Source: a virus. Taken from it: a stretch of DNA of 64,000 nucleotides. A model generated the notes under the pieces. It did not search any database. It was not told the origin of the DNA and saw only the letters and a list, made by a program, of their open reading frames with translations. Shown in pieces: positions 1 through 55,068 of this stretch. Every line of letters begins with the position of its first letter. The first letter of the stretch is position 1. Location: the IMG/VR virus record IMGVR_UViG_3300029984_000008, positions 1 to 64,000 of that record, one strand, 5' to 3'. Position numbers and translations under genes: made by a program.

Positions 1-120
1 TTACACCTGAAGCAGCAGCGGAGGTTACACCTGAAGCAGCAGCGGAGGTTACACCTGAAGCAGCAGCGGAAGTTACACCTGAAGCAGCAGCGGAGGTTAC
101 ACCTGAAGCAGCAGCGGAGG
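1..120 (+). repeat. five 24-bp tandem repeats (VTPEAAAE)
   Basis: Five consecutive 24-bp units fill 1-120 and may extend beyond the window. They are nearly identical; one has GAA instead of GAG. The period is a multiple of three, so the repeat is kept in frame at protein level. Copy number could vary by slippage. Confidence 0.9.
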
Positions 121-350
121 TTACACCCGAAGAAGTGGCAACAGGAACAACAGCTGAAGAAGCTGCAGCAGCTATGCAAACTATAAAAGATGCTATGCTT
201 GTATTGGAAGATTTTGTAAAGTCTGAATCAATTAATCCAGGACTTCTTGCAAGTTTTAAAGTAGAACCAGCAAATGACAGGGAAACACCAAGAAGTAAAG
301 AAGAGTGGGAAAGAGACTTCGACACTCAATCCCGCAGAGTATACAGATAA
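1..350 (+). CDS. 3' part of a protein with VTPEAAAE repeats, upstream of tail sheath
   Basis: The reading frame is open from the window edge (codons in phase from base 3) to a TAA at 348-350, so the 5' end is missing. The visible part starts with five 24-bp repeats encoding VTPEAAAE, then a degenerate sixth. A non-repetitive tail of about 70 residues follows, rich in Glu, Lys and Arg and ending SRRVYR. The repeat is acidic and Ala/Pro-rich, like a flexible linker. It lies 16 bp before the tail sheath gene, where head-completion or tail-terminator proteins often sit, but I do not recognise a family. The GTG at 135 is probably an internal Val codon. Confidence 0.6.
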   Translation, partial: TPEAAAEVTPEAAAEVTPEAAAEVTPEAAAEVTPEAAAEVTPEEVATGTTAEEAAAAMQTIKDAMLVLEDFVKSESINPGLLASFKVEPANDRETPRSKEEWERDFDTQSRRVYR

Positions 351-17966: not shown

Positions 17967-18003
17967 AAAAAGCTCCATCTAGCTAATAGATGGAGCTTTT
18001 TCG
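17967..18003 (+). terminator. terminator after HU gene
   Basis: AGCTCCATCT (17971-17980) pairs with AGATGGAGCT (17988-17997); an A-run lies before and a T-run after. It may work in both directions and isolates the HU and repA units. Confidence 0.88.
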
Positions 18004-18007
18004 TTAC

Positions 18008-18040
18008 GTATACTTTTAAAGGTCGCCTTTGTATGGTAAA
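18008..18040 (+). promoter_or_regulatory. phage-specific (class A) promoter for repA
   Basis: TATACT (18009) and TATGGT (18032) are 17 bp apart, with the shared GTATACTTT and GCCTTTGTAT blocks. This is the most divergent of nine copies in the window. The leader between it and the initiator gene is about 150 nt. Confidence 0.75.
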
Positions 18041-18044
18041 ATAG

Positions 18045-18070
18045 AATAGAGGTGCTTCAACACCTCTATT
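18045..18070 (+). promoter_or_regulatory. leader hairpin upstream of repA
   Basis: AATAGAGGTG (18045-18054) pairs perfectly with CACCTCTATT (18061-18070) over a CTTCAA loop, immediately downstream of the class A promoter. There is no T-run. Confidence 0.7.
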
Positions 18071-18098
18071 AAACAAGTAGCTAGGAGAATTGCACCTC

Positions 18099-18152
18099 TG
18101 TATACTATGAGTTACAAAACATCTACGTATTAAATTGTATCTATAGTATACA
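18099..18152 (+). repeat. inverted repeat in repA leader
   Basis: TGTATACTAT (18099-18108) and ATAGTATACA (18143-18152) are perfect inverted repeats separated by 34 nt. They could form a leader stem or be operator half-sites controlling initiator expression and hence copy number. Function inferred. Confidence 0.6.
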
Positions 18153-18194
18153 CGATGCAGGCCTTCTAGCGCAAGTACTTAGGAGGAGAAAATT

Positions 18195-18851
18195 TTGAAC
18201 AAAAATAAAATAATAACAGTGAATGACCTAAATTCAGATATATTTTACAAATTACCTAAGGCATTTTTCCTTAATCCTTTTTACACAAGCATGAAAAATG
18301 AGAGTAAGTTAGCTTATGCCTTACTGAAGGACCAGCTAAGTTTATCTGCTAAGAACGGGTGGATTAATGAGGATAATGAGATATACGTAAAATTGAGTAG
18401 AGAAAAACTAATGAAGTACTTAAATATAAAAGGTACACAAAAGATGACCCAAATTATGGACGAGCTAAAGAGCAAAAATTTGATAGTAGAAAAGCAGCTA
18501 GGTGTAAATAGATGCAATGAAATTTATATGTGTAGCCCTGATGAGCTGGACACTATATACTCAGATGATGAGTTGTTAGAAAATGGAAATGAATCCTCTG
18601 CAAGTACTGAAAATACTTTGACCTTTGAAAATCAAAACTCAGGACTTTTGAAAAACAAAGGTCAAGACTTTTTAAAATCAAAGGTCAAGACTTTTGAAAA
18701 TCAAATTCATAATAAGAATAACTATAATAAGACTAATTATAATAACAATAAGAGTGCAGGGGAGAAAAAATTAAAGTTTGATAATTTTGAAGCTAGAAAA
18801 TATGATTATGATGCCCTAGAGAAAAAACTACTAGGATGGGATAAAGATTAA
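18195..18851 (+). CDS. repA: RepA_N-family plasmid replication initiator
   Basis: This is a 218-residue protein. The N-terminal 120 residues match the RepA_N domain of Gram-positive plasmids: FYKLPKAFFLNPFYTSM, a LAYALLKDQLSLSAKNGWI stretch, then a winged-helix segment (LSREKLMKYLNIKGTQKMTQ). These proteins bind iterons in their own coding sequence and recruit host DnaA/DnaB. It begins with TTG at 18195 after AGGAGGAG. The variable linker (about residues 135-180) is encoded by 23-bp direct repeats. The C-terminus is short (YDYDALEKKLLGWDKD). An initiator of this class is expected on a plasmid, not on a typical virulent myophage. Confidence 0.85.
   Translation: MNKNKIITVNDLNSDIFYKLPKAFFLNPFYTSMKNESKLAYALLKDQLSLSAKNGWINEDNEIYVKLSREKLMKYLNIKGTQKMTQIMDELKSKNLIVEKQLGVNRCNEIYMCSPDELDTIYSDDELLENGNESSASTENTLTFENQNSGLLKNKGQDFLKSKVKTFENQIHNKNNYNKTNYNNNKSAGEKKLKFDNFEARKYDYDALEKKLLGWDKD
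18627..18705 (+). repeat. 23-bp iterons inside repA, candidate replication origin
   Basis: Three consecutive 23-bp units start at 18627, 18650 and 18673, each beginning with a form of GAAAATCAAA and ending GACTTTT. A fourth partial unit starts at 18696, and GACCTTT at 18620-18626 resembles a preceding unit end. A 23-bp period is not a multiple of three, so successive units encode different peptides; DNA sequence is what is conserved. A very A/T-rich tract (18706-18760) follows, as expected of an unwinding element. RepA_N plasmids carry their origin at this place in the gene. Confidence 0.8.
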
Positions 18852-18866
18852 GGAGGCTGATGTTAA

Positions 18867-19325
18867 GTGTATATACTTTCAGATTTTATTCGTGACGGGA
18901 ATTTTACTATGCCTGAAAAGATGACATATATGGTGCTATGGAGCTACAGAGAGCAAAATAGTCTCATCTGTAATGTTACTTGTAAGCAAATAGCACATGA
19001 TATGACGACCTCTACTAAAACAGCTTATAGGCTACTAGATTCGCTAGCTAAAAAGAAGCTGATAAAAATAAATAAGCTAAATGTATATGAAATCAAGAAA
19101 GAGTTAGAAGCTAAAAATATGCAAGGAAAAGGCATAGGTAGTAATACATGCACATGGTGTAAGTGTAAAACTTATATACTACATGCACACCATTTTCCCA
19201 TAAGGAAGGAAGCTGGTGGTAATGTAACAGTAGACATCTGCCCCAGCTGTCACCAGGAATTTCACTTTTTAGAGAATAGCATAGAACTAGTTGACAGCGG
19301 CTATATAGCAGATAAGTTGACATAA
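18867..19325 (+). CDS. winged-helix protein fused to an HNH-like zinc domain
   Basis: This is a 152-residue protein. Residues 1-75 form a winged-helix unit (KMTYMVLWSYREQN, then TCKQIAHDMTTSTKTAYRLL) typical of replication-initiator or DnaD-like N-termini. Residues 92-140 hold an HNH-type zinc motif: CTWCKCK, HAHHFP, then ICPSCHQEFH. It begins with GTG at 18867 after AGGAGG, 15 bp behind repA and probably cotranscribed. It may be a homing-type nuclease with a borrowed DNA-binding domain, or a regulator using the zinc fold. Function is not settled. Confidence 0.55.
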   Translation: MYILSDFIRDGNFTMPEKMTYMVLWSYREQNSLICNVTCKQIAHDMTTSTKTAYRLLDSLAKKKLIKINKLNVYEIKKELEAKNMQGKGIGSNTCTWCKCKTYILHAHHFPIRKEAGGNVTVDICPSCHQEFHFLENSIELVDSGYIADKLT

Positions 19326-25904: not shown

Positions 25905-26075
25905 TATATCAAATATAAAACTTATAATTTAGGGAACTAGCATATGAATTACAGTGGCTTTCCATTTTAGGCACAGTAGCAGAATGTACTGAAAGGACAC
26001 ATATGCTGACCAGCTGTGCGGATAGCAAAACTTATTTCAATGCTAGCAAGCTCAAAGAAGCAGGGGGAAAACAAT

Positions 26076-29000
26076 ATGACAAAAGGAACAGACCAAAAGA
26101 GCGCAGAGACAAATAATGTAACAGATAACATAGCAGAGTTTAAATATGTAGATGCTTTTCATCAAAACCCAAAAACAGGGGATAGAACCAAATGGATAAG
26201 ACTTGAGGTAGGCGAAGCAATAGAGAAGTACAGAAGCCAGTGTAACAACTATAATGTATTTAATACAGTACAGCTATATAGGAATAAAGTAAGGCAAGCA
26301 GGCAATGAGCCGATGTATATGCCTTTATATTTTGACATAGACTCTAAGATGCTACTTGCAGCCGATTATACAACTACACCAGCTGCACCAGGGCTTATAG
26401 AGGCTGGCTGTGTAAAAGCAGCAGAGCTACAAGGAATACTACCAGCTGAGCTTTTAGCACATGTCAGCAATAGTGAAATGGGGATACCCTTAACACAGGA
26501 CACATGTACTAAAATCAATCAAGTAATAGACGCCTCTAACTTAAACGATTTTGTTTGGATAAGAAATCTAGAACAGAGTAGAGCAGACGCTGTTAAAATT
26601 ATAAGATTCTTTAGAGATAGGTTTGGTTTTACTGAGGATGAAATAAGAGTATACTTCAGTGGCTCTAAAGGATTTCACCTATTGGTTAATCCAGTAGTGC
26701 TCGGTATAAAACCTGATAAAAACCTACACAGAGTATATAAATTGATAGCAACCTATTTAGAAACACAGCTAGGCTTAAAATGTTTAGACACTGCCTCCAT
26801 ATATGGACATAGCCGCCAACTAAGGCTACAAAACTCAATACATTACAAATCAGGTCTCTTCAAAGTAGAGCTTACACCTGCAGAGCTTATGGGGGATATT
26901 AGAGATATAATTACTAATATAGCAAAATCCCCTAGAGGGGACATATACCCACCAGAACAAGTAGAGTATCAACTAAATGTAAAAGCTAATGAGTGGTACC
27001 TAACTAAAGTACAAGAATACACAGAGGCTAAAAGATTGGAAGATACCAGAGCTTCTATAACTGATGATGTGCTATCTAGTATGGAGAGTGTACCAACATG
27101 CGTACAATATGTACTAGACAAAGGTATCCTCAAAAATGGCGATAGAAACAAAGCTACAATGGCCCTAGCCTCCTATTATAAAGGTATAGGCACAACTGTA
27201 GGTGAAACTTGTGATATATTGACAGCCTGGGCTAAGAAAATACCAGCATCAATGACCTCTAGCTCAAGTACTGAGGTCGAAGCATCTACTATATCTTGTG
27301 TAAAAACAGTTTATCAGGAAGATAGGTATAAGTTCCACTGTGCATATATTAGAAGCTTGCACGGAGATAAGAACGGCCAAGGCTATGAAAATATACCATG
27401 TAGTGGTAGGGGCTGCCCTGCACACTCAGACCATGCTATAGAAGCAGAGCCAGCTGAGTTTATGCACCTATCACAAACAGGTAGGGCAGAGTATACAGGT
27501 AAGAAGGTAGCCTTTAATGCCTTAGTTAGTGGCAAGATGGATACACCTTATATAATACCAAGCAAGGTTAGATTTACATGTCACCATGAAGAAGATTGTC
27601 AAAAGCCTTGTATATTACATGACTACAGCGGAATGTATGAAAAGGAATTTCATGAAAATGACAGCTTTCTAATTGAGGCTACTAACCAAAATGCTACACA
27701 GCTAAAAGGTATATTAAGATATCATAGTGGAGCTAGCTGCACTAAAGTAGTTCACGAAGTTATAGACACAGTTAATATAAGTGAGCTGCTAGTAGTACCA
27801 ATGGCAGAGCGTATTAAGTCTGTGAAGACCTCTGAGGATGGCCCTATAGTAGATATAGATGAAAGCGGTAATGAATATGTTACACGTAAAATTTATGCTG
27901 TAGGGGATGACGTAAAGTCTAATAGTCACTATAGAATAGAGGGCTATGTATACCCACACCCAAAGAATAGAATGGCTACACTACTAAGTCAAGCGCAGGA
28001 GCCTCTACAAGATAGTGTTTCTAGGTTTGAGCTCACTGACGAAATAAAGGACAGCTTTAAAGTACTTCAAGTGCAGCCAGGAGAGACCCTAGACGATAGA
28101 ATAAGCTTAATTGTAGACGACCTAGTAAACAATGTCACCCTAGTAAGAGATAGGTTTGCACCACACTTAGCAGTGCTTTTAACTTACCACTCATGCTTGA
28201 ATTATTACTTTCAGGGGCAACTTGAAAAGAGAGGCTGGGTAGAAACTATTCTTGTAGGGGACAGCGGTCAGGCTAAGAGCCAATTGGTGTCAAATATTAT
28301 GGAATTTAGTGGCTTAGGTAGCTTAGCTTCAGGTGAAGGTGCCAGTCGTACAGGTCTTGTTTATAGATTGGACCAATTTGGTGACCGCTGGTTTATTACC
28401 TGGGGTAAGTACCCTTTATCTGATAGAAAACTTATTGCAATAGATGAGTTTTCAGAGCTAGACCCTGAAGACTTTGGAAAGATTACAGAGGCTAGAACCA
28501 CTGGGGTACTAAGAGTAGATAGGACAGTAAATGCAGAGACAAATGCCAGAGTAAGAACTATACTTATGACTAACCCAGCAAAAGCAAAAGAACTAAGTAG
28601 TTTTACTCATGGTGTGGAAGCACTGAAGCCCTTATTTGCCTCTCCAGCAGATATTAGAAGACTAGACCTAGCTGTATTTCTAGAGTCTGGGGACGTTTCA
28701 AAGGATGTATTAAATGCAGAGTATGAGAAATCAACTAAACAGCTAATAGACTCTACAGTATTTAGAGACTCAATACTGTGGGCCTGGAGCCGTAGTGCTA
28801 GTGATATAGAAATAGATAAGAAAACTATGAAGGCTATACTAGCAAAAGCCGAGTCTCTTGGTGAAAAGTATGGCTATTCAAAGGACGTACCGCTAATGGA
28901 ACCTGCAGACTTGCGTAAGAAAATAGCCAGACTAGCAATAGCTCTAGCTGCCTTAGTGCATTCTACAGATGAAACACATACTAAGGTTATAGTTAAAAAA

Positions 29001-29360
29001 GAGCATGTAGATGCAGTAGAAGATTTTATAACTATCATATATGATGATAACAACTGTAGGTTAGATGAATATTCCGCACGAAGTCGTGCAGAGTCTGAGC
29101 TTACAGATGAAGAGAGAGCTGAGGTATCTAAAGCATTAAAAGCCTTAGACTTTGGTGATAACGCTGCAGTATCTGCAGAAATATTAGCACTCTTCAGGAG
29201 AAATGACATATTGAAGCCTAACGAGATTATGGATATGTTAGGTTATGACCGTGCTCAGGTAACTGCTAGACTAGCTATATTAAATAAGCATAGCATGACA
29301 AAGAGCACCAGGTCAGGTCTTAAGAAGCTACCAAAGTTTATAGACTTTTTAATGCAATAA
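26076..29360 (+). CDS. AEP primase fused to MCM-like replicative helicase
   Basis: About 1094 residues; ATG at 26076 is preceded by CAGGGGGAAAAC, better than the upstream GTG. The N-terminal archaeo-eukaryotic primase domain has the metal motif FDIDS (Asp87, Asp89) and SGSKGFH (Lys198, His201). A Cys cluster (HCAY, CSGRGCPAH) follows, then a zinc/OB-like section (FTCHHEEDCQKPC). The C-terminal AAA+ domain is MCM-like: Walker A GDSGQAKS (Lys734), the SGEGASRTGLVY insert-helix region, Walker B IDEF (Asp790, Glu791), LMTNP sensor and an RRLDL arginine finger near residue 860, then a winged-helix tail. It should both prime and unwind. A similar fusion is known from a Bacillus cereus prophage element. 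Confidence 0.88.
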   Translation: MTKGTDQKSAETNNVTDNIAEFKYVDAFHQNPKTGDRTKWIRLEVGEAIEKYRSQCNNYNVFNTVQLYRNKVRQAGNEPMYMPLYFDIDSKMLLAADYTTTPAAPGLIEAGCVKAAELQGILPAELLAHVSNSEMGIPLTQDTCTKINQVIDASNLNDFVWIRNLEQSRADAVKIIRFFRDRFGFTEDEIRVYFSGSKGFHLLVNPVVLGIKPDKNLHRVYKLIATYLETQLGLKCLDTASIYGHSRQLRLQNSIHYKSGLFKVELTPAELMGDIRDIITNIAKSPRGDIYPPEQVEYQLNVKANEWYLTKVQEYTEAKRLEDTRASITDDVLSSMESVPTCVQYVLDKGILKNGDRNKATMALASYYKGIGTTVGETCDILTAWAKKIPASMTSSSSTEVEASTISCVKTVYQEDRYKFHCAYIRSLHGDKNGQGYENIPCSGRGCPAHSDHAIEAEPAEFMHLSQTGRAEYTGKKVAFNALVSGKMDTPYIIPSKVRFTCHHEEDCQKPCILHDYSGMYEKEFHENDSFLIEATNQNATQLKGILRYHSGASCTKVVHEVIDTVNISELLVVPMAERIKSVKTSEDGPIVDIDESGNEYVTRKIYAVGDDVKSNSHYRIEGYVYPHPKNRMATLLSQAQEPLQDSVSRFELTDEIKDSFKVLQVQPGETLDDRISLIVDDLVNNVTLVRDRFAPHLAVLLTYHSCLNYYFQGQLEKRGWVETILVGDSGQAKSQLVSNIMEFSGLGSLASGEGASRTGLVYRLDQFGDRWFITWGKYPLSDRKLIAIDEFSELDPEDFGKITEARTTGVLRVDRTVNAETNARVRTILMTNPAKAKELSSFTHGVEALKPLFASPADIRRLDLAVFLESGDVSKDVLNAEYEKSTKQLIDSTVFRDSILWAWSRSASDIEIDKKTMKAILAKAESLGEKYGYSKDVPLMEPADLRKKIARLAIALAALVHSTDETHTKVIVKKEHVDAVEDFITIIYDDNNCRLDEYSARSRAESELTDEERAEVSKALKALDFGDNAAVSAEILALFRRNDILKPNEIMDMLGYDRAQVTARLAILNKHSMTKSTRSGLKKLPKFIDFLMQ

Positions 29361-48509: not shown

Positions 48510-48560
48510 GAAGAAAAGCCCGTAGCCTCTACACTATAGTAGAGACACGGGCTTTTCTTC
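48510..48560. terminator. bidirectional terminator between convergent operons
   Basis: GAAGAAAAGCCCGT (48510-48523) pairs with ACGGGCTTTTCTTC (48547-48560), with an inner CTCTAC/GTAGAG stem. A-run and T-run on both sides serve both strands. The last codons of the leftward gene lie within it. Confidence 0.85.
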
Positions 48561-49451
48561 TTTTCCATACCATATGCTACCCAGTGGATTTATCTCTACT
48601 TCATCTTTTGAAGCAAAGAGCCACTGAAGGTCTGTATTATCTATTCCGTATATACAGTCTCTTAGTACCAGGGCCCTAGCTTTTGTAGGGGCAACGGTTA
48701 GCACTAAAGGAAAACTTCCATAGGTAGCCTCAAAGGTTCCTGAGCCATAGAAAGCTGCATATCTTTTATGCTTACGCTGGAATACTTGCGGTGTCATAGT
48801 CCCATTGTCCCACTCTAAAAAGAAGTGAAAGCCTTCATCTTCAGAGAACCAATACTGGCCGTAGGCATCTGGATTGCATATCATACGCTCGCCCCAGAAC
48901 TTAAAACTATGCCTACAGTGGTTCTCTGTTCTGAAGCCAGTTACCTCATGACCTAGCTCTCTAGCTTTTCTAAGCAAGTAGAGATAGAAGTTATTAGTAT
49001 CTACCATGTGCTCTAGGTACGGAAGTCTAGCCTCATTCATTTCATAGGACCAGGAAATATCTTCTATCTTTTGGCCTAGCATACCAGCGACTACCTTAGC
49101 ACCTAATTCATCTAGGACCACGTGCCCCTGTGAGCTGCCTTCATTTCCTACGTCAACAAAGAACCTGTCTACTATACGGTTATCAAATAATTTTCTAATC
49201 CTACGTCTTGCTATGAGTTCTGCTTGTGTATTTTCTTTGCCTCTGAAGCTATACTTATAGTGCATTTCAGCTATTTGCCTAGTGGTGAGGCAGCGCTGAT
49301 AGTAGAGAGACAGCAGCATTTCTTTATCTCTAGGGGTTAGACTAGCTTTTTGAAGAGCTTCAGGGGTACTACGACTCACCTCTGTATACTTACGACTAAA
49401 CTTAGATATTCTGCGACTAGTTATACACCTAGCCTTTTCTTTATCGTCCAC
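48534..49451 (-). CDS. replication-relaxation family protein
   Basis: 305 residues from GTG 49451 with AAGGAGG upstream. N-terminal helix-turn-helix (LTPRDKEMLLSLYYQRCLTT, RQIAEMHY), a RRIRKLFDNRIVDRF winged part, and FHFFLEWDNGTMTPQVFQRK plus HKRYAAF, matching the plasmid replication-relaxation family. Such genes sit next to TraG-like ATPases in Gram-positive plasmids and integrative elements and are thought to act at a transfer or replication origin. Here it follows that ATPase, the same arrangement. Confidence 0.75.
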   Translation of the reverse strand: MDDKEKARCITSRRISKFSRKYTEVSRSTPEALQKASLTPRDKEMLLSLYYQRCLTTRQIAEMHYKYSFRGKENTQAELIARRRIRKLFDNRIVDRFFVDVGNEGSSQGHVVLDELGAKVVAGMLGQKIEDISWSYEMNEARLPYLEHMVDTNNFYLYLLRKARELGHEVTGFRTENHCRHSFKFWGERMICNPDAYGQYWFSEDEGFHFFLEWDNGTMTPQVFQRKHKRYAAFYGSGTFEATYGSFPLVLTVAPTKARALVLRDCIYGIDNTDLQWLFASKDEVEINPLGSIWYGKEEKPVSLL

Positions 49452-49464
49452 TTTTTTAACCTCC

Positions 49465-51993
49465 TTATTTTTTCTTTTTAATGCGTCCTGTGGCCTTACC
49501 TATTTTCACAGGAGCACTGTCATCCTCTGTAATCTGGTTCTTTTGAGTTAAGCTATATCTTTCTTGTATATCATCTTTAATCTGGTCTAGCCTCATATAG
49601 TTCTTTTTCTTATACTGCTCTTTCCACGCTTGCACTTCCTTAAGTCTAGTAGCCTCTGCAACTACTCTGCCTTTATCATCTACATATGGAAAATAGACAT
49701 TCATATCTAAATTGTCAAATGTGAAGGGATTAGGGTGAATCTTTTTAAACCTACCATAGCCAGTATACTGAATCATAGAGGTCAGGTCGTCCTCTGTTAC
49801 GCCAGGGAACATTCTTTTAATCTTAGTGGCTGAAGAGGTACCAATGAGTAGACTAATTTGAGTAAAGGTATTATCCTCTATCATACCCATAAGCTGTGCT
49901 GGAATCTGCTCTACGCTCTGATGAGCCATGATTAAGCCTAGGCCGTAACTTCTAGCCAGCTCAAGGAACTTTTGTATATCCTCTGACTGATTAATGAATA
50001 GTTCAAACTCATCCATGAATAGTATATGAGGTACACGGTCCTTAACTGGTATATCACCTCTAGAGAATATTCCATTAGATACAAGGGCTGTGAAAAGTGT
50101 ACCAAAAAAGGACACTATTTCTGTGGTATTTTTATCCATAGCATAATTAACTATAATTATAGCTTTTTCATCTAATAATTTACGCCAGTCGAATAAATTA
50201 GCCCTTTGACACATACTATAGCGAGGTAGCTCATTTTGTGTAATAATTTCAAGTTTATTTAATATAGCCTTAGCTTCATTTTGTCGAGCCTTTGGTGTCA
50301 TATGAGCATAGCTCAGCCAGTAACTGAGGACGTCAGGAAAGTCTGTGTGGTCCTGCATCTTTTCAATAGTGTGTATTAGGTAGTCTTCATCTGTGAACAT
50401 ACGATATACTTCGAGGATAGAACCCTCTTCATTAGTAGATATAACAGCTATAAGAGCTCTCCTTAGTATACTTTGGCTGTGCTCTTTTATAGAGCCTTCA
50501 GAGTTTAATTTTAGGAATACACTTACTATCATAGTTGCTAGGTTATAAGTGCTCATGCCTGGCTGTCTTAGAAAATTGATAGGCATAAACATTGTTAGGT
50601 CCTGCATATCTATATACTGTATGCGGTTCCACTCAGACTTAGGTAAGTGGGCCATAAGGTCATCTGCTACGTCTCCCTTTACATCAAAGAATGTCATGCC
50701 GCAAAATCTAGTAATCTGAAGAGCTATAAATGATAACCAGTAGCTCTTACCTGAGCCTGTACCTCCTATACAGTAGACATGCTGCATTAGCATCTTAAGG
50801 TCCTTAAAAGCTAGGTATTTTTGTCTACCTCTGAAGTTAGACATTCCGAATACTATAGCTTTATCTGCCCATGCCTCTTCAATAGTGTTATATTGATATA
50901 CACCGTCTGGTACTGCCATTTTCTTAGCTCGGAGTCTTATTACACCTGGAATGTTTTTGGAGGGAAAGTGGAGCACTGTGGCGAGTTCTGGAGGGGTCAC
51001 ATAGTTTTCTGTAGGGTAGACTGCAATGCTTCTATCTGAATATTCTTTCAGAAATTTACTCACTTGAGTTATATTAAATATCTTAAGCCAGGGCCTCTTC
51101 ACTGTCTGCTTATAGACTTCACGGTAGTTTGTATAAGCTCTAAATCTATTTTTATCGGTGGCTGGTGCAAAGGCGCTTATTACAGTATTTAATCTAGCCC
51201 TACCTTTTTTAAAGTCTGGGTTATAACAAACTGCCCTAATATTGAGGTCAAAATATACACCAGCTTCCAGCTTTTTCTGAATACTGGAGAGACTGGTGTT
51301 ATGGTCTTTAGCTCCTGAATTACCCACTACTGCATACTTTAATGCGCCTACCAGAGCTTTTGGTGATTCTAATAAGCCCGTCCACTTAGTGTAAGGCTGG
51401 TGTAATTTAGAAGGTCTGGAGCTTGTCTTTTTATATATTTCATAATAGCTACTGGCTATAGTAAGTGCTCTGAAGTTGATAGGGCGTAGTGTAAACTGCA
51501 CCCATACCTCTTCATTATCATCTAAATTTTGCATACTAGCACAGAGGCTAGCCACCATGTCAGCACCTACACGCTCACCGTCACTCTGTAGTAGATTAAA
51601 TATATAATGACTATCAAGGTCCAGGGTAGCACAGGCACTTTTTACAGCGGTTATACTACCAGGTTTGGCGTAGTCTTTATTTGCATCTATTGCTACTATC
51701 TCTGCAGCTGGGTGGATTGAGTTTATATTAGACTGTAAAAATTCCTGTGTAACATTATCTGATAGCCATGCGTAGAGGCTTATACCTTTAGCTGTCCCTT
51801 GAAACTCAAAGGTTAGCCAGGTATAAGGATTTTTAGAATTATATATAGTGTAGAGGCTATCGAATAGGTTGTTATACTGTGAAGGTTTAAACTCTGCATC
51901 TTTCTCTATATAAATCTGGTAGAGGTGGCCACCTTCAGAGGCCTTTCTTAATTTATTTCTACAGTAAGGGTACATTAATGATTTAATTATCAT
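49465..51993 (-). CDS. TraG/VirD4-like coupling ATPase
   Basis: 842 residues. Walker A GGTGSGKS near residue 414, FFDVKGDVADDLM, Walker B-type HILFMDEFELF and IMAHQS sensor show a TraG/VirD4/HerA-type ring ATPase. Residues 1-400 are beta-rich with no clear membrane span, like the large N-terminal domain of coupling ATPases that pair with replication-relaxation proteins. It would pump DNA or protein through a membrane pore. Membrane anchors are probably supplied by the two small proteins encoded just upstream. AGGAGG precedes the ATG. Confidence 0.8.
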   Translation of the reverse strand: MIIKSLMYPYCRNKLRKASEGGHLYQIYIEKDAEFKPSQYNNLFDSLYTIYNSKNPYTWLTFEFQGTAKGISLYAWLSDNVTQEFLQSNINSIHPAAEIVAIDANKDYAKPGSITAVKSACATLDLDSHYIFNLLQSDGERVGADMVASLCASMQNLDDNEEVWVQFTLRPINFRALTIASSYYEIYKKTSSRPSKLHQPYTKWTGLLESPKALVGALKYAVVGNSGAKDHNTSLSSIQKKLEAGVYFDLNIRAVCYNPDFKKGRARLNTVISAFAPATDKNRFRAYTNYREVYKQTVKRPWLKIFNITQVSKFLKEYSDRSIAVYPTENYVTPPELATVLHFPSKNIPGVIRLRAKKMAVPDGVYQYNTIEEAWADKAIVFGMSNFRGRQKYLAFKDLKMLMQHVYCIGGTGSGKSYWLSFIALQITRFCGMTFFDVKGDVADDLMAHLPKSEWNRIQYIDMQDLTMFMPINFLRQPGMSTYNLATMIVSVFLKLNSEGSIKEHSQSILRRALIAVISTNEEGSILEVYRMFTDEDYLIHTIEKMQDHTDFPDVLSYWLSYAHMTPKARQNEAKAILNKLEIITQNELPRYSMCQRANLFDWRKLLDEKAIIIVNYAMDKNTTEIVSFFGTLFTALVSNGIFSRGDIPVKDRVPHILFMDEFELFINQSEDIQKFLELARSYGLGLIMAHQSVEQIPAQLMGMIEDNTFTQISLLIGTSSATKIKRMFPGVTEDDLTSMIQYTGYGRFKKIHPNPFTFDNLDMNVYFPYVDDKGRVVAEATRLKEVQAWKEQYKKKNYMRLDQIKDDIQERYSLTQKNQITEDDSAPVKIGKATGRIKKKK

Positions 51994-52009
51994 AATAGTC
52001 TGTGCCTCC

Positions 52010-52201
52010 TTATATTAGCGCTTTTACAGCTTCCCAAATATGGGTAACTAGGTCTGTAGCTAATTTTCCGCTACCAATGTAGTCCCGTAGTAAGAATAGT
52101 ATTTTTGTTACGAAGATAACTGTTACACCTGTATATGTGGTTACTAGAGTCCATTTAATTATAAAACCTTCAACTTCTGTGTGCTTTTGAGCATCATACA
52201 T
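52010..52201 (-). CDS. small membrane protein of the TraG-like operon
   Basis: 63 residues. One long hydrophobic span (TTYTGVTVIFVTKILFLL) with polar ends. AGGAGGTGTTGGC before ATG. Probably the membrane partner of the ATPase. No family recognised; pilin-like proteins have similar size. Confidence 0.5.
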   Translation of the reverse strand: MYDAQKHTEVEGFIIKWTLVTTYTGVTVIFVTKILFLLRDYIGSGKLATDLVTHIWEAVKALI

Positions 52202-52212
52202 GCCAACACCTC

Positions 52213-52779
52213 CTACATATTAAGCATAGTGCTTATTGACTGATAGATAGTAGTGAATAGACCTATTACTTCCTTGAGTATAATTGCACCGCCTACAAAG
52301 GATACTAGAGGTATAAAATCACCACGGCCTGTAAACTTTAAGAAGCTGCATACTACTAGAGTAATAAATCCTATAATTAGCATATGAAGCAGTATAGCCC
52401 CTTGACCTGAGAAGAAGTTACCTCCACCTTCAGCGTATACTTCAATTGCGTCGCCACCGTATTTATTGTAGGCTACAATTTTTTGTAGAAATTCTCCTGG
52501 ATGTAGTTTAAATAAACCAAAACTAAATGCAGGTACCCCTATCATAATAGCAGCTGTGATTTTTTTATTATTCATGAACCAGCGGATAAAATGTCTGCTA
52601 TTTACTATAGCTGAAATATCCTCTGTAGAGGCTGTAGGAAATACTGTTTTACATGTTACTATGTCATCTACAACGCCCCTTCGACCTAGTTTAAATACCT
52701 CTGACATAGTAGTACCAGGCATTAGCTCCTTTATAGTATTTAGTTCACTAAATTTTACTGAATAGCTGTTGTTTAACAT
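52213..52779 (-). CDS. multi-pass membrane protein of the TraG-like operon
   Basis: 188 residues. Soluble N-terminus of about 80 residues, then about three hydrophobic spans (ITAAIMIGVPAFSFGLF, AILLHMLIIGFITLVVC, FVGGAIILKEVIGLF). First gene of the leftward operon, after AGGAGAGGATTTAG. A transfer-channel part is inferred from context only. Confidence 0.5.
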   Translation of the reverse strand: MLNNSYSVKFSELNTIKELMPGTTMSEVFKLGRRGVVDDIVTCKTVFPTASTEDISAIVNSRHFIRWFMNNKKITAAIMIGVPAFSFGLFKLHPGEFLQKIVAYNKYGGDAIEVYAEGGGNFFSGQGAILLHMLIIGFITLVVCSFLKFTGRGDFIPLVSFVGGAIILKEVIGLFTTIYQSISTMLNM

Positions 52780-52810
52780 CTAAATCCTCTCCTATATGTT
52801 TTTGTTGTAT

Positions 52811-52827
52811 CAGGGTATATTACCCTG
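52811..52827 (-). promoter_or_regulatory. palindrome in leader of the TraG-like operon
   Basis: CAGGGTA-TAT-TACCCTG is a perfect 7-bp inverted repeat about 30 bp before the first gene on the - strand. A candidate operator or leader hairpin. A TTCACA / TAATTT pair further upstream may be the promoter. Confidence 0.5.
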
Positions 52828-52914
52828 TATTCCTACTAATAAATTATGCTGTTTTACAAAATGTGTGAATATTTTTACTGTACTTGAAGGTGTATTGGCT
52901 ATGAATAATACATA

Positions 52915-52961
52915 AAAAGAACACAGCAAGCGCCTAAATAGCTGCATTTGCTGTGTTCTTA
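52915..52961 (-). terminator. terminator for the partition operon
   Basis: AAGAACACAGCAA (52918-52930) pairs with TTGCTGTGTTCTT (52948-52960), with T-runs on the - strand side. It ends the ParM-ParR-YdjM unit. Confidence 0.8.
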
Positions 52962-52996
52962 ATCAATGTGACTTATTTCTATTTTTTATTTTTCTT

Positions 52997-53419
52997 TTAC
53001 CATATTTTAATAAGAAATTTGTGTCTCTTCATTGCGGAACTTAGTTTGTCACCAAATAAATGTGATAAGCCGCCTATAACTACCATATAATACATATCTG
53101 TTCCTTTTATTGTATCTGTAGTTAATAGTAAGAAAGGTATTGATATTATTAGTAGGCCAACTATACTATGACAATGTCCTCTGTGTTTCATAAATGGTGT
53201 AAATGGATTATATCGCCCTAGTGTACTATTTCTCTGGTCAATATCTGGTAATAAGCTGCCTATAAGTACTGCCATGAATAATACTGGACTATGCGCTATA
53301 AAGTAAGCTACTATGGAACCTATGACCAAATGTCCTGTATAATTGAAGATAACACACCTTCCTTCTATCTCTCTTATTTCTCTACTATTAGTATGTGCAT
53401 TTCTAGCTTTTATATGCAC
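52997..53419 (-). CDS. YdjM-family membrane-bound metal-dependent hydrolase-like protein
   Basis: About 140 residues. GSLLPDIDQRNSTLGR and MKHRGHCHSIVGLL carry the Asp/His motifs of the YdjM (DUF457) family, with about four hydrophobic spans. The substrate is unknown in the family. The start is unclear: GTG 53419 lacks a ribosome site, while GAAGGAAGGTG lies 60 bp inside, without an in-frame ATG nearby. Ends near the partition operon terminator. Confidence 0.65.
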   Translation of the reverse strand: MHIKARNAHTNSREIREIEGRCVIFNYTGHLVIGSIVAYFIAHSPVLFMAVLIGSLLPDIDQRNSTLGRYNPFTPFMKHRGHCHSIVGLLIISIPFLLLTTDTIKGTDMYYMVVIGGLSHLFGDKLSSAMKRHKFLIKIW

Positions 53420-53435
53420 GGTAAATAATGGAATT

Positions 53436-53873
53436 TTAAAAATTATTGCCTAATAGCCTACTCTTCACTGAGCTTCTTAGCTGCTCTTTATCCTTATTCT
53501 TAGCTAGGGGGCTTGGCTTAACTGTAGGCTCTGGGAAGTTCTGCCAAAAAAAGTCCTCTCTCTTATGTTCTTCTTTTACCTCTTCAGGTGTATTAACTAC
53601 TTTCTCCTCTTCCTGTATGTTGTTAGCTACTACTAGTTTATCTATTTGACGCTGTGGTAGCACCTCTGTGGCTACTTGAGTCTCTGTTGCTGCTCTGTCT
53701 ATTTGATGCTGTGTTAAAGCACCTGGGTACTTTTGTTGCTCTATAGCAAGCACCCTACGATATACCTCTTTAAGCCTGCTTGTCCTATCTTTGTATTTGT
53801 CTAGGTCCTTTATTATATCAGCATCTGTATTTGGATTAAGTCGAAAACCAACTGGTTTACTAATCATAGCCAT
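53436..53873 (-). CDS. parR: ParR-like DNA-binding adaptor of actin-type partition
   Basis: 145 residues. N-terminal KPVGFRLNPNTDADIIKDLD followed by SRLKEVYRRVLAIEQ fits the ribbon-helix-helix StbB/ParR group. The C-terminal 90 residues are charged and disordered, as expected for the part that meets the filament. Begins one base after the ParM stop, so the two are cotranslated. ParR binds the centromere and the filament end. Confidence 0.75.
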   Translation of the reverse strand: MAMISKPVGFRLNPNTDADIIKDLDKYKDRTSRLKEVYRRVLAIEQQKYPGALTQHQIDRAATETQVATEVLPQRQIDKLVVANNIQEEEKVVNTPEEVKEEHKREDFFWQNFPEPTVKPSPLAKNKDKEQLRSSVKSRLLGNNF

Positions 53874-53874
53874 C

Positions 53875-54909
53875 TTATATCAATCCTTCCTTAATCTTTA
53901 GCATTCCATATTTCCTATAGCCACTGGCGTTAGAGTACTCAGGCTCGTCTAACTTTATAACGGGGATGCCTGTAAGCTCTACTAGATAGTCATAGTAGAG
54001 GTTTGCGCCACCTCCACATATTAGTATAGCTGAGAACCTTCTGAAGTCTGGAACCCATACACTAAGCTCCTGAGCAAGCTCTGGGAATACCTGGTCTATT
54101 GCTTGCTTGCATAAGTCAGCAACGTCTGTGCTAACACCTCCGAGTTTAACTAGTCCTGTTCTTAGGACCTCATCAACTTTATAAGGGGGTATAGCGTACT
54201 TATGCTTCTTAAGCACAAGCTTCCTAAGCTCATTTTGTACTTTATGAACGCCGTGCTGTATAGTGAAGCTATCCTGGCTGAAGCTTGCAGCCTCCATGAT
54301 ACAACCATCTGTAGTCTTTCCACCGAGGTCAAGCACTAGCACATCCTCTGAGGCTAATTCTATGTGGTCCATGTTCTCAGTGCCATCTTCATTTAATACA
54401 AAGTCAAAGAACGCCCCAGCGGACTGTGGGAGAGTAAGAGACCTTTTAACTTGCACAAACTTCTCACTATCACCAAAACCAAACTTGAAGTCACCTTTAA
54501 GCCTCTCCGTAAAGTTATCCCTTATCTCATCTACCATAAACTCTTCTACGGGTAAGCCGCTAACTATTAAGTCTATAACACTCTTTCCAGTCTCCTCATT
54601 GTAGAGGCCTAGCATTGCAAGCATCTTCGGTGTATCGCTCTGAGATACTAGACGCTCTGCGTTAAAGTCATATGAACCCTTAGCACCTACATTCCATACA
54701 CCTACCTGGTCTGTTATGATATAGCCCTCTGAGTCTGCTAAACCTGAAACTACGACCTCCGAACGTCTCTTTACTATGCTAGCAAATTTACAGCTCCAGT
54801 GAGCTGCTACTGCCTTACCTTGGGTATAGCCTAGGTCAATTGCTAATACTTCTGGGTCCACTGTAATTGCTGGTTTTAGATTTGTTTTCTTGATTGCTGT
54901 ATTTGTCAT
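53875..54909 (-). CDS. parM: ParM/StbA-like actin ATPase for plasmid segregation
   Basis: About 344 residues from ATG 54909 (AGGAG at good spacing; GTG 54915 is less likely). Actin-fold motifs: phosphate 1 VLAIDLGYTQGK, phosphate 2 LVLDLGGKTTDG, adenosine AILICGGGANLYY. ParM filaments push sister replicons apart. With ParR downstream and repeated sites upstream, the full partition set is present. A tubulin-like PhuZ is not seen here, so this is a plasmid-type system. Confidence 0.85.
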   Translation of the reverse strand: MTNTAIKKTNLKPAITVDPEVLAIDLGYTQGKAVAAHWSCKFASIVKRRSEVVVSGLADSEGYIITDQVGVWNVGAKGSYDFNAERLVSQSDTPKMLAMLGLYNEETGKSVIDLIVSGLPVEEFMVDEIRDNFTERLKGDFKFGFGDSEKFVQVKRSLTLPQSAGAFFDFVLNEDGTENMDHIELASEDVLVLDLGGKTTDGCIMEAASFSQDSFTIQHGVHKVQNELRKLVLKKHKYAIPPYKVDEVLRTGLVKLGGVSTDVADLCKQAIDQVFPELAQELSVWVPDFRRFSAILICGGGANLYYDYLVELTGIPVIKLDEPEYSNASGYRKYGMLKIKEGLI

Positions 54910-54931
54910 TTTCACTGCTCCTATTCCTTTA

Positions 54932-55068
54932 TTGTTATACAGAAAACTAAGTCCCTGTAATACACTATATTCGACACCATTACAGAAGTTCCTGCCTGGC
55001 TGTATAACACTTATATAAATTTTTGTTGTACACAGACTATACTACCAGAGTTATCCTTGTATAACAAG
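54932..55068. repeat. candidate parC centromere, repeated TGTATAACA sites
   Basis: Upstream of parM are TTGTTATACAG (54932), CTGTAATACAC (54953), CTGTATAACAC (55000), TTGTTGTACACAG (55023) and the palindrome CTTGTATAACAAG (55056-55068). Spacing is roughly two or more helical turns. ParR-type centromeres consist of such repeats before the operon. Role inferred. Confidence 0.55.

What the first reader, a model, noticed from the sequence alone, without database searches (positions are those of the whole stretch)
18627..18705. 23-bp iterons out of codon phase inside a RepA_N gene: candidate phage-plasmid origin
Three 23-bp units plus a partial one lie in the repA linker. Because 23 is not divisible by three, each copy is read in a different frame, yet DNA identity is kept. 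Selection is therefore on DNA, as for initiator-binding iterons. A/T-rich DNA follows. Known RepA_N plasmids place their origin in the same part of rep. In a tailed phage this suggests a dual-mode replicon.
Basis: partly seen in the sequence, partly recalled or inferred. Interest (0 to 1): 0.82.

Follow-up and report, generated by a model that had tools for sequence, protein, structure and literature searches.

The report
Plasmid-type origin inside phage repA gene
A roughly 102-kb tailed phage, probably of Clostridia, carries a plasmid-type replication-start gene whose own DNA contains the landing sites for the protein it encodes, and the protein ends in a copy of the tail of a host replication protein (DnaD), so it probably replicates like a plasmid by borrowing the host's helicase-loading machinery.

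Summary
Window 18620-18705 has three 23-bp units plus a 17-bp fourth. Each is a 21-bp imperfect palindrome, GACYTTTG-AAAAT-CAAARGTC, lying in the linker of a RepA_N initiator gene (PF06970, E 2.7e-21). The repeat exceeds codon shuffles and 2000 synonymous recodings.

It is not a one-off. In 23 of 26 RepA_N genes from plasmids and phages the strongest tandem repeat has a period of 23 (or 45/46) bp, mostly at the same place. Many share the plan GA-N5-G-AAAAT-C-N5-TC, and AT-rich 15-bp repeats usually follow. pTZ2162 RepA, crystallised on its iteron, is the closest solved relative. This is therefore a standard RepA_N origin embedded in rep.

Less ordinary: the protein lacks the globular C-terminal domain of staphylococcal RepA_N. 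It ends in a 27-residue tail 23/27 identical to that of Clostridium chromosomal DnaD, also found on unrelated Rep_3, phage and DnaD-type initiators.

The genome closes at about 102.5 kb. It encodes ParM and a ParR-like protein, has no detected integrase, and relatives (65-68% identical primase-MCM) lack RepA_N. Phage-plasmid is likely but unproven: lytic phages also carry ParM, and RepA_N also drives lytic replication.

The parts
17967..18001 (+). perfect 15-bp inverted repeat with a T-run inside its 3' arm, upstream of the repA transcription unit; probable intrinsic terminator
   Evidence: the repeat finder I3; sequence. The consensus terminator scan did not list it, so the terminator role is inference.
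18004..18042 (+). copy of a dispersed phage promoter-like element (cgtatactttt...CCTTTGTATGGTAA) driving repA
   Evidence: one of at least ten well-matched copies of the core in the phage records, most in front of genes
18045..18163 (+). strongly structured repA leader: hairpin 18045-18070 plus a long stem-loop
   Evidence: RNA fold of 18045-18230: -46.7 kcal/mol, z -4.28 against 200 shuffles; regulatory role is inference
18195..18851 (+). repA, 218-aa RepA_N initiator (TTG start behind AGGAGG)
   Evidence: PF06970 E 2.7e-21; PDB relatives 4pt7, 4pql, 5kbj
18195..18545 (+). sequence for the folded DNA-binding N-terminal domain (aa 1-117)
   Evidence: AlphaFold2 pLDDT mostly 82-94 over residues 21-110; nearly all of residues 118-196 below 50
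18620..18640 (+). iteron 1, GACCTTTGAAAATCAAAACTC, then 2-bp spacer
18643..18663 (+). iteron 2, GACTTTTGAAAAACAAAGGTC, then 2-bp spacer
18666..18686 (+). iteron 3, GACTTTTTAAAATCAAAGGTC, then 2-bp spacer
18689..18705 (+). iteron 4, partial (17 bp: GACTTTTGAAAATCAAA)
18709..18751 (+). AT-rich 15-bp tandem repeats, candidate DNA-unwinding element
   Evidence: TRF period 15, 2.9 copies; same kind of repeat with AAnACTRA follows the iterons in most RepA_N genes compared
18780..18848 (+). sequence for most of the DnaD-type C-terminal tail (aa 196-218, FDNFEARKYDYDALEKKLLGWDKD region)
   Evidence: 27-residue segment KLKF...WDKD 23/27 identical to Clostridium DnaD tails; short helix 205-212 in the model
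18867..19325 (+). downstream gene, HTH_36 winged helix plus a Cys/His-rich end, in the same segment absent from relatives
   Evidence: PF13730 E 1.2e-6; no hit in three relatives
53875..54915 (-). ParM-type actin (supports plasmid-mode maintenance)
   Evidence: PF17989 E 8e-12; PRK13917 plasmid segregation protein ParM 111 bits, below its equivalog cut-off of 417; PDB ParM relatives
53436..53873 (-). ParR-like gene directly behind parM
   Evidence: position and a short basic N-terminal region; no family model matched, so this is inference
54932..55067 (-). three copies of TGTATAACA/TGTTATACA upstream of parM, possible parC or operator sites
   Evidence: only 5 copies in 64 kb, 3 of them here; weak

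Best explanation
This is the replication origin of a RepA_N replicon, embedded in its own initiator gene. RepA dimers bind through the winged-helix N-terminal domain to the 23-bp palindromic iterons at 18620-18705. This opens the AT-rich 15-bp repeats at 18709-18751. The disordered linker that this DNA encodes tolerates whatever amino acids the iterons spell in each frame. The protein then offers a C-terminal tail copied from, or shared with, the tail of the host's DnaD, which recruits the host helicase-loading machinery. In this ~102.5-kb phage the replicon most likely maintains the prophage as a low-copy plasmid together with ParM and a ParR-like protein, while the phage's own primase-MCM and DNA polymerase serve lytic growth. 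Shown here: the repeats, their DNA-level constraint, family membership, shared iteron plan, missing globular C-terminal domain, tail match, ParM gene, no detected integrase. Inferred: binding, melting, docking, plasmid state.
For: RepA_N domain. Non-triplet palindromic repeats, far above codon shuffles and synonymous recoding. Best tandem period 23 or 45/46 bp in 23 of 26 RepA_N genes, mostly in the linker after the domain, and AT-rich 15-mers next to it. Shared unit plan, e.g. GAAGTTCGAAAATCGAACGTC in the plasmid whose RepA sequence matches the crystallised pTZ2162-type protein 4pt7, 17/23 identical to this unit. Published: pSK41 ori lies in rep, its domain 1-120 binds it, the linker is dispensable (PMC5703833); iteron description (PMC7145576). 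Linker disordered, no globular C-terminal domain, helix at 205-212. Tail 23/27 identical to Clostridium DnaD; B. subtilis DnaD tail binds ssDNA and DnaB (PMC10201434, PMC13326638). Plasmid mode: ParM and neighbour, no tyrosine or serine recombinase found, closed genome, HTH_3 and Bro-N genes.
Against: No functional data. The three records with this gene are nearly identical (one difference in 20.6 kb), so repeat conservation within the lineage cannot be tested. Relatives with the same replication core lack RepA_N, and three of the four lineages have ParM whether or not they have RepA_N, so ParM and RepA_N are not strictly coupled. ParM-like genes occur in lytic phages SPO1 and G. GC skew shows no switch near 18.6 kb. 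No GTDB genome was found with the phage's primase-MCM, so no lysogen is known. The Clostridium DnaD tail match gives a host guess only; the phage has about 39% G+C.
Confidence: 0.62

Rival explanations
1. Same embedded RepA_N origin, but its job is lytic-phase replication (or a start-up origin that feeds the primase-MCM replisome), not plasmid maintenance. ParM then serves intracellular DNA positioning during lysis.
For: RepA_N genes with 45-bp iteron arrays sit next to helicase-loader genes in Streptococcus phages. ParM-like genes occur in SPO1 and phage G. repA has a phage-type dispersed promoter. A RepA_N initiator of the satellite PLE replicates only with its helper phage present (PMC7145576).
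Against: Relatives with the same primase-MCM, polymerase and helicase lack RepA_N, so the lytic core does not need it. No integrase was found, while regulatory genes of temperate phages are present. The tail points to host, not phage, machinery.
Confidence: 0.27
2. A recently acquired plasmid replicon cassette that is silent or degenerate here; the repeats persist only because the acquisition is young, or they serve only repA autoregulation.
For: The segment from repA to about 20.6 kb is missing in three relatives, and only one lineage of RepA_N carriers is known in this phage group. The fourth iteron is incomplete. The protein lacks a globular C-terminal domain.
Against: The reading frame is intact with a ribosome-binding site and a phage-type promoter in front. 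Both ends of the protein are well conserved. A Clostridium MAG RepA_N has the same combination of iterons, 15-mers and tail (L092).
Confidence: 0.09
3. A protein-level repeat or a chance low-complexity A/T stretch with no DNA function.
For: The region is 70-75% A+T and the encoded linker is low in complexity.
Against: Codon shuffle and synonymous recoding tests; non-triplet period; the same plan in many RepA_N genes.
Confidence: 0.02

Closest known systems
RepA_N replicons of staphylococcal plasmids pSK41 and pTZ2162 (PF06970; structures 4PTA, 4PT7, 5KBJ)
   Same: N-terminal DNA-binding domain, semi-palindromic iterons around an A-tract, 23-bp period (pTZ2162-type plasmids), origin inside rep just after the domain, AT-rich 15-mers next to it; pSK41 also uses a ParM
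   Different: 218 aa instead of 312-355 aa for the staphylococcal plasmid proteins compared (pSK41 319 aa); no globular C-terminal domain, a DnaD-type tail instead; carried by a ~102-kb tailed phage
RepA_N genes of Streptococcus phages (CHPC1198, 7201, Javan349)
   Same: Phage-borne RepA_N with iterons in the linker and AT-rich 15-mers
   Different: Array period 45 bp; followed by a DnaI-type helicase loader; phages of about 33-37 kb; different C-terminus
RepA_N of a Clostridium MAG (L092, contig JARLHR010000249.1)
   Same: 23-bp iterons, AATAAGACTAATATAAATAAA 15-mers and the same DnaD-type tail (21/27 identical)
   Different: 326 aa, keeps about 100 residues between the 15-mers and the tail; weaker iteron array
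PLE RepA (RepA_N of a Vibrio phage satellite, PMC7145576)
   Same: RepA_N initiator with A-tract palindromic iterons in a phage-linked element
   Different: Origin in a non-coding region; replicates only during helper phage infection
Lambda O protein and its iterons inside gene O (own knowledge, not tested)
   Same: Initiator-binding repeats inside the initiator gene of a phage
   Different: Unrelated protein family and lytic-phase use

Membership tests
RepA_N replicon | PF06970 N-terminal domain | tested here: met
   75.7 bits, cut-off 30, E 2.7e-21; PDB relatives E ~1e-23; Foldseek to 4pql/5kbj E <= 6e-10
RepA_N replicon | semi-palindromic direct-repeat iterons converging on an A-tract | tested here: met
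   GACYTTTG-AAAAT-CAAARGTC, period 23
RepA_N replicon | iterons inside rep, after the N-terminal domain (typical, not universal) | tested here: met
   codons 142-171, domain ends ~117
RepA_N replicon | initiator binds the iterons and drives replication | not testable with these tools
   needs binding and minireplicon assays
Staphylococcal three-domain RepA_N initiators (pSK41 type) | globular C-terminal domain that binds DnaG primase | tested here: not met
   218 aa; residues 118-196 disordered, then one short helix
Phage-plasmid | tailed-phage structural genes | tested here: met
   portal, terminase, major head, baseplate, endolysin families
Phage-plasmid | plasmid replication and partition genes | tested here: met
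   RepA_N; ParM; the ParR-like partner is inferred
Phage-plasmid | no integrase | tested here: met
   no PF00589 or PF00239 in the records covering the closed genome; other recombinase families were not searched
Phage-plasmid | found as a stable plasmid in cells | not testable with these tools
   no isolate known; genome-contig scan with the primase-MCM alignment found none
DnaD C-terminal-tail carriers | tail motif FxNFxxRxYDYDxLExxLLGW at or near the C-terminus | tested here: met
   23/27 identical to Clostridium DnaD tails; families carrying the tail
DnaD C-terminal-tail carriers | tail binds host helicase loader or ssDNA | not tested
   known for B. subtilis DnaD only (PMC10201434, PMC13326638)

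The most novel reading that the evidence does not exclude
A stripped-down initiator that fuses a RepA_N DNA-binding domain, its own origin as the linker, and a copy of the host DnaD tail, so that one 657-bp gene is close to a complete self-addressed replicon. The same tail is a portable helicase-loading module that unrelated initiators (Rep_3, phage replisome organisers, Lin1244-type, RepA_N) of clostridial mobile elements carry to enter the host replisome.
Probability: 0.5. Interest if true: 0.68.

Novelty: new variant of a known kind. Interest (0 to 1): 0.52.

Why it matters
The iterons and their place are what RepA_N replicons are known for, so the origin itself is a new member of a known kind. 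The variant is the protein: no globular C-terminal domain, ending instead in a DnaD-type tail. How RepA_N proteins recruit the replisome is called unknown in the literature read here (PMC7145576). A tail shared by host DnaD and several unrelated mobile-element initiators gives a simple, testable answer for Clostridia. A 657-bp self-contained replicon could also be useful as a vector for that group. The comparison also gives a common plan for RepA_N origins (23-bp palindrome with a fixed centre and variable arms, then 15-bp AT-rich repeats) that can be used to find origins by sequence alone.

Tried and rejected
Protein-repeat or chance origin of the array: rejected by codon shuffles and synonymous recoding. 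A second iteron set elsewhere in the genome: none found. Another known plasmid Rep replacing RepA_N in relatives: the genes at the equivalent place and Pfam scans of accessory genes (one search lists only 25 of 34 families) gave no plasmid Rep family. Host through the primase-MCM in GTDB genomes: no hit. ParM relatives in IMG/VR by single-sequence search: none; they were found by family search in the relatives instead. Antisense copy-control RNA over the structured leader, as in pSK41: no convincing promoter on the minus strand, left open. GC skew as an origin mark: uninformative. A literature search for the Moorella phage with related genes found nothing.

Full report
WHAT WAS CLAIMED. Three 23-bp units and a partial one at 18627-18705 inside a RepA_N gene, out of codon phase, taken as iterons of a phage-plasmid origin.

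CHECK OF THE REPEATS. The array runs from 18620 to 18705: GACCTTTGAAAATCAAAACTCAG, GACTTTTGAAAAACAAAGGTCAA, GACTTTTTAAAATCAAAGGTCAA and GACTTTTGAAAATCAAA. Each full unit is an imperfect 21-bp palindrome, GACYTTTG-AAAAT-CAAARGTC, plus 2 bp. The self-repeat score of 43.0 compares with at most 16 in 100 codon shuffles and at most 22.5 in 2000 synonymous recodings of the same protein. The pattern occurs three times in the window, all here, with none expected. Of all scored tandem arrays of period 17-30 in this record and three relatives, only this one has a period that is not a multiple of three. Selection on DNA is the sensible reading. Copies 1 and 4 do share a frame.

THE GENE. 18195-18851 encodes 218 aa with a RepA_N domain. 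The nearest solved structures are the RepA_N domains 4pt7, 4pql and 5kbj, the last one bound to DNA. AlphaFold2 gives a folded domain to about residue 117, disorder from 118 to 196, and a short helix at 205-212. The iterons are codons 142-171, so they lie in the disordered linker.

THE SAME ORIGIN ELSEWHERE. I compared 26 RepA_N genes from plasmids, phages, viral contigs and one Clostridium MAG, some of them close to each other. The best tandem period is 23 bp in 15 and 45 or 46 bp in 8; the three others have none or only the AT-rich repeats. In a few (L046, L056, L062, L064, L065) the array is weak, near or below the shuffle maximum. Units centred on the A-tract include GAAGTTCGAAAATCGAACGTC, GACGTGTGAAAATCACACGTC, GAATTGTGAAAATCACAATTC and GAAGTTTGAAAAACAAACTTC; the window unit fits the same plan. 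The outer GA/TC and the centre recur while the arms vary. After the iterons come 15-bp AT-rich repeats, often with AAnACTRA, also in the window at 18709-18751. Published work agrees: the pSK41 origin is four Rep boxes inside rep, bound by residues 1-120, and the linker is dispensable (PMC5703833); [quoted passage not shown]

THE TAIL. The window protein stops soon after the AT-rich repeats and has no room for a globular C-terminal domain. It ends KLKFDNFEARKYDYDALEKKLLGWDKD. A scan of GTDB genomes with this tail gave 51 loci, mostly Clostridium. The best are DnaD-domain proteins (TIGR01446) with 23 of 27 residues identical at their last residues. The scan selects for the tail, so the tail itself is no surprise; that the carriers are almost all initiators, and that the tail sits at or near the C-terminus, is not built in. 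The carriers scanned include DnaB_2/DnaD, Rep_3, Phage_rep_org_N, Lin1244_N and RepA_N proteins. In B. subtilis the DnaD tail binds single-stranded DNA and its last eight residues, with W229, bind the helicase co-loader DnaB (PMC10201434, PMC13326638). I infer that the phage RepA presents a DnaD-type tail to load the host helicase. Equivalence of the B. subtilis and clostridial tails was not tested.

THE PHAGE. The window is part of a 71,835-base IMG/VR record. A second record of 80,258 bases overlaps it at both ends, closing a genome of about 102.5 kb, either a circle or a permuted linear molecule. Portal, terminase, head, baseplate and endolysin families are present, with a primase-MCM protein, PolA, SNF2 helicase, HU and class II ribonucleotide reductase. 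No tyrosine or serine recombinase was found in the records. A ParM gene lies at 53875-54915, directly followed by a ParR-like gene. An HTH_3 gene and a Bro-N anti-repressor lie in the record beyond the window. repA is preceded by a phage-type dispersed promoter element, so it is wired into the phage's own expression.

RELATIVES. Three ~100-kb contigs share the replication core (primase-MCM 65-68% identical) and most late genes. They lack RepA_N, and the segment 18195 to about 20.6 kb has no counterpart in them. Two of the three have ParM. RepA_N is therefore an accessory cassette of this lineage and not needed for the lytic core.

HOW IT MOST LIKELY WORKS. RepA binds the iterons (shown for relatives, inferred here), melts the AT-rich 15-mers (inferred), and recruits host helicase loading through the DnaD-type tail (inferred from sequence and from B. 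subtilis data). Used together with ParM it would keep the prophage as a low-copy plasmid (inferred). The main rival is that the same origin serves lytic replication: RepA_N genes sit beside helicase-loader genes in Streptococcus phages, and ParM-like genes occur in lytic phages. The evidence does not settle this.

VERDICT. Observation confirmed, interpretation supported, with phage-plasmid the likely but unproven lifestyle. The embedded origin is an ordinary member of the RepA_N kind; the minimal protein with a DnaD-type tail is a new variant, and the tail as a shared module is the part worth following.

Noticed in passing
window 18780-18848; L074-L124, L127-L144: A DnaD-type C-terminal tail (FxNFxxRxYDYDxLExxLLGW) recurs at or near the C-terminus of unrelated initiators (DnaD, Rep_3, phage replisome organisers, Lin1244-type, RepA_N) in Clostridia.
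   Followed up: partly
window 18709-18751; RepA_N genes L041-L065, L092: 15-bp AT-rich tandem repeats with AAnACTRA follow the iterons in most RepA_N genes compared; a common candidate unwinding element.
   Followed up: partly
window 18026, 19350, 24467, 39943, 46519, 55122, 55850, 57704, 60398; L021:9452(-): Dispersed promoter-like element (cgtatacttt...CCTTTGTATAGTAA), usually followed by a hairpin of varying sequence and a gene start; probably the phage's own promoter class.
   Followed up: partly
window 48534-54915 (-): Operon-like block ParM, ParR-like, unknown, SpoIIIAC/AD-like membrane protein (52213-52779), T4SS coupling-type ATPase and Replic_Relax protein; largely kept in the relatives.
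   Followed up: partly
window 26016-29360: 1114-aa protein joining an archaeal/eukaryotic-type primase region and an MCM helicase domain; relatives in Bacillus, Microbacterium and Thermus phages.
   Followed up: no
window 18045-18163: Strongly structured repA leader (z -4.28); possible copy-number control, but no clear antisense promoter.
   Followed up: partly
window 1-132: 24-bp in-phase tandem repeats in a coding region; the second record carries more copies than this one.
   Followed up: no
L145 (MN270259.1): The RepA_N of 'Streptococcus phage phi-SgaBSJ31_rum' sits among Tn5252/TrsE-type conjugation genes and resistance genes, so that stretch looks like an integrative conjugative element rather than phage.
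   Followed up: no
L122, L123: The tail motif also appears near the start of long proteins in Sulfurimonas/Sulfurovum MAGs, whose later part looks like an ABC-transporter ATPase; probably unrelated to replication.
   Followed up: no
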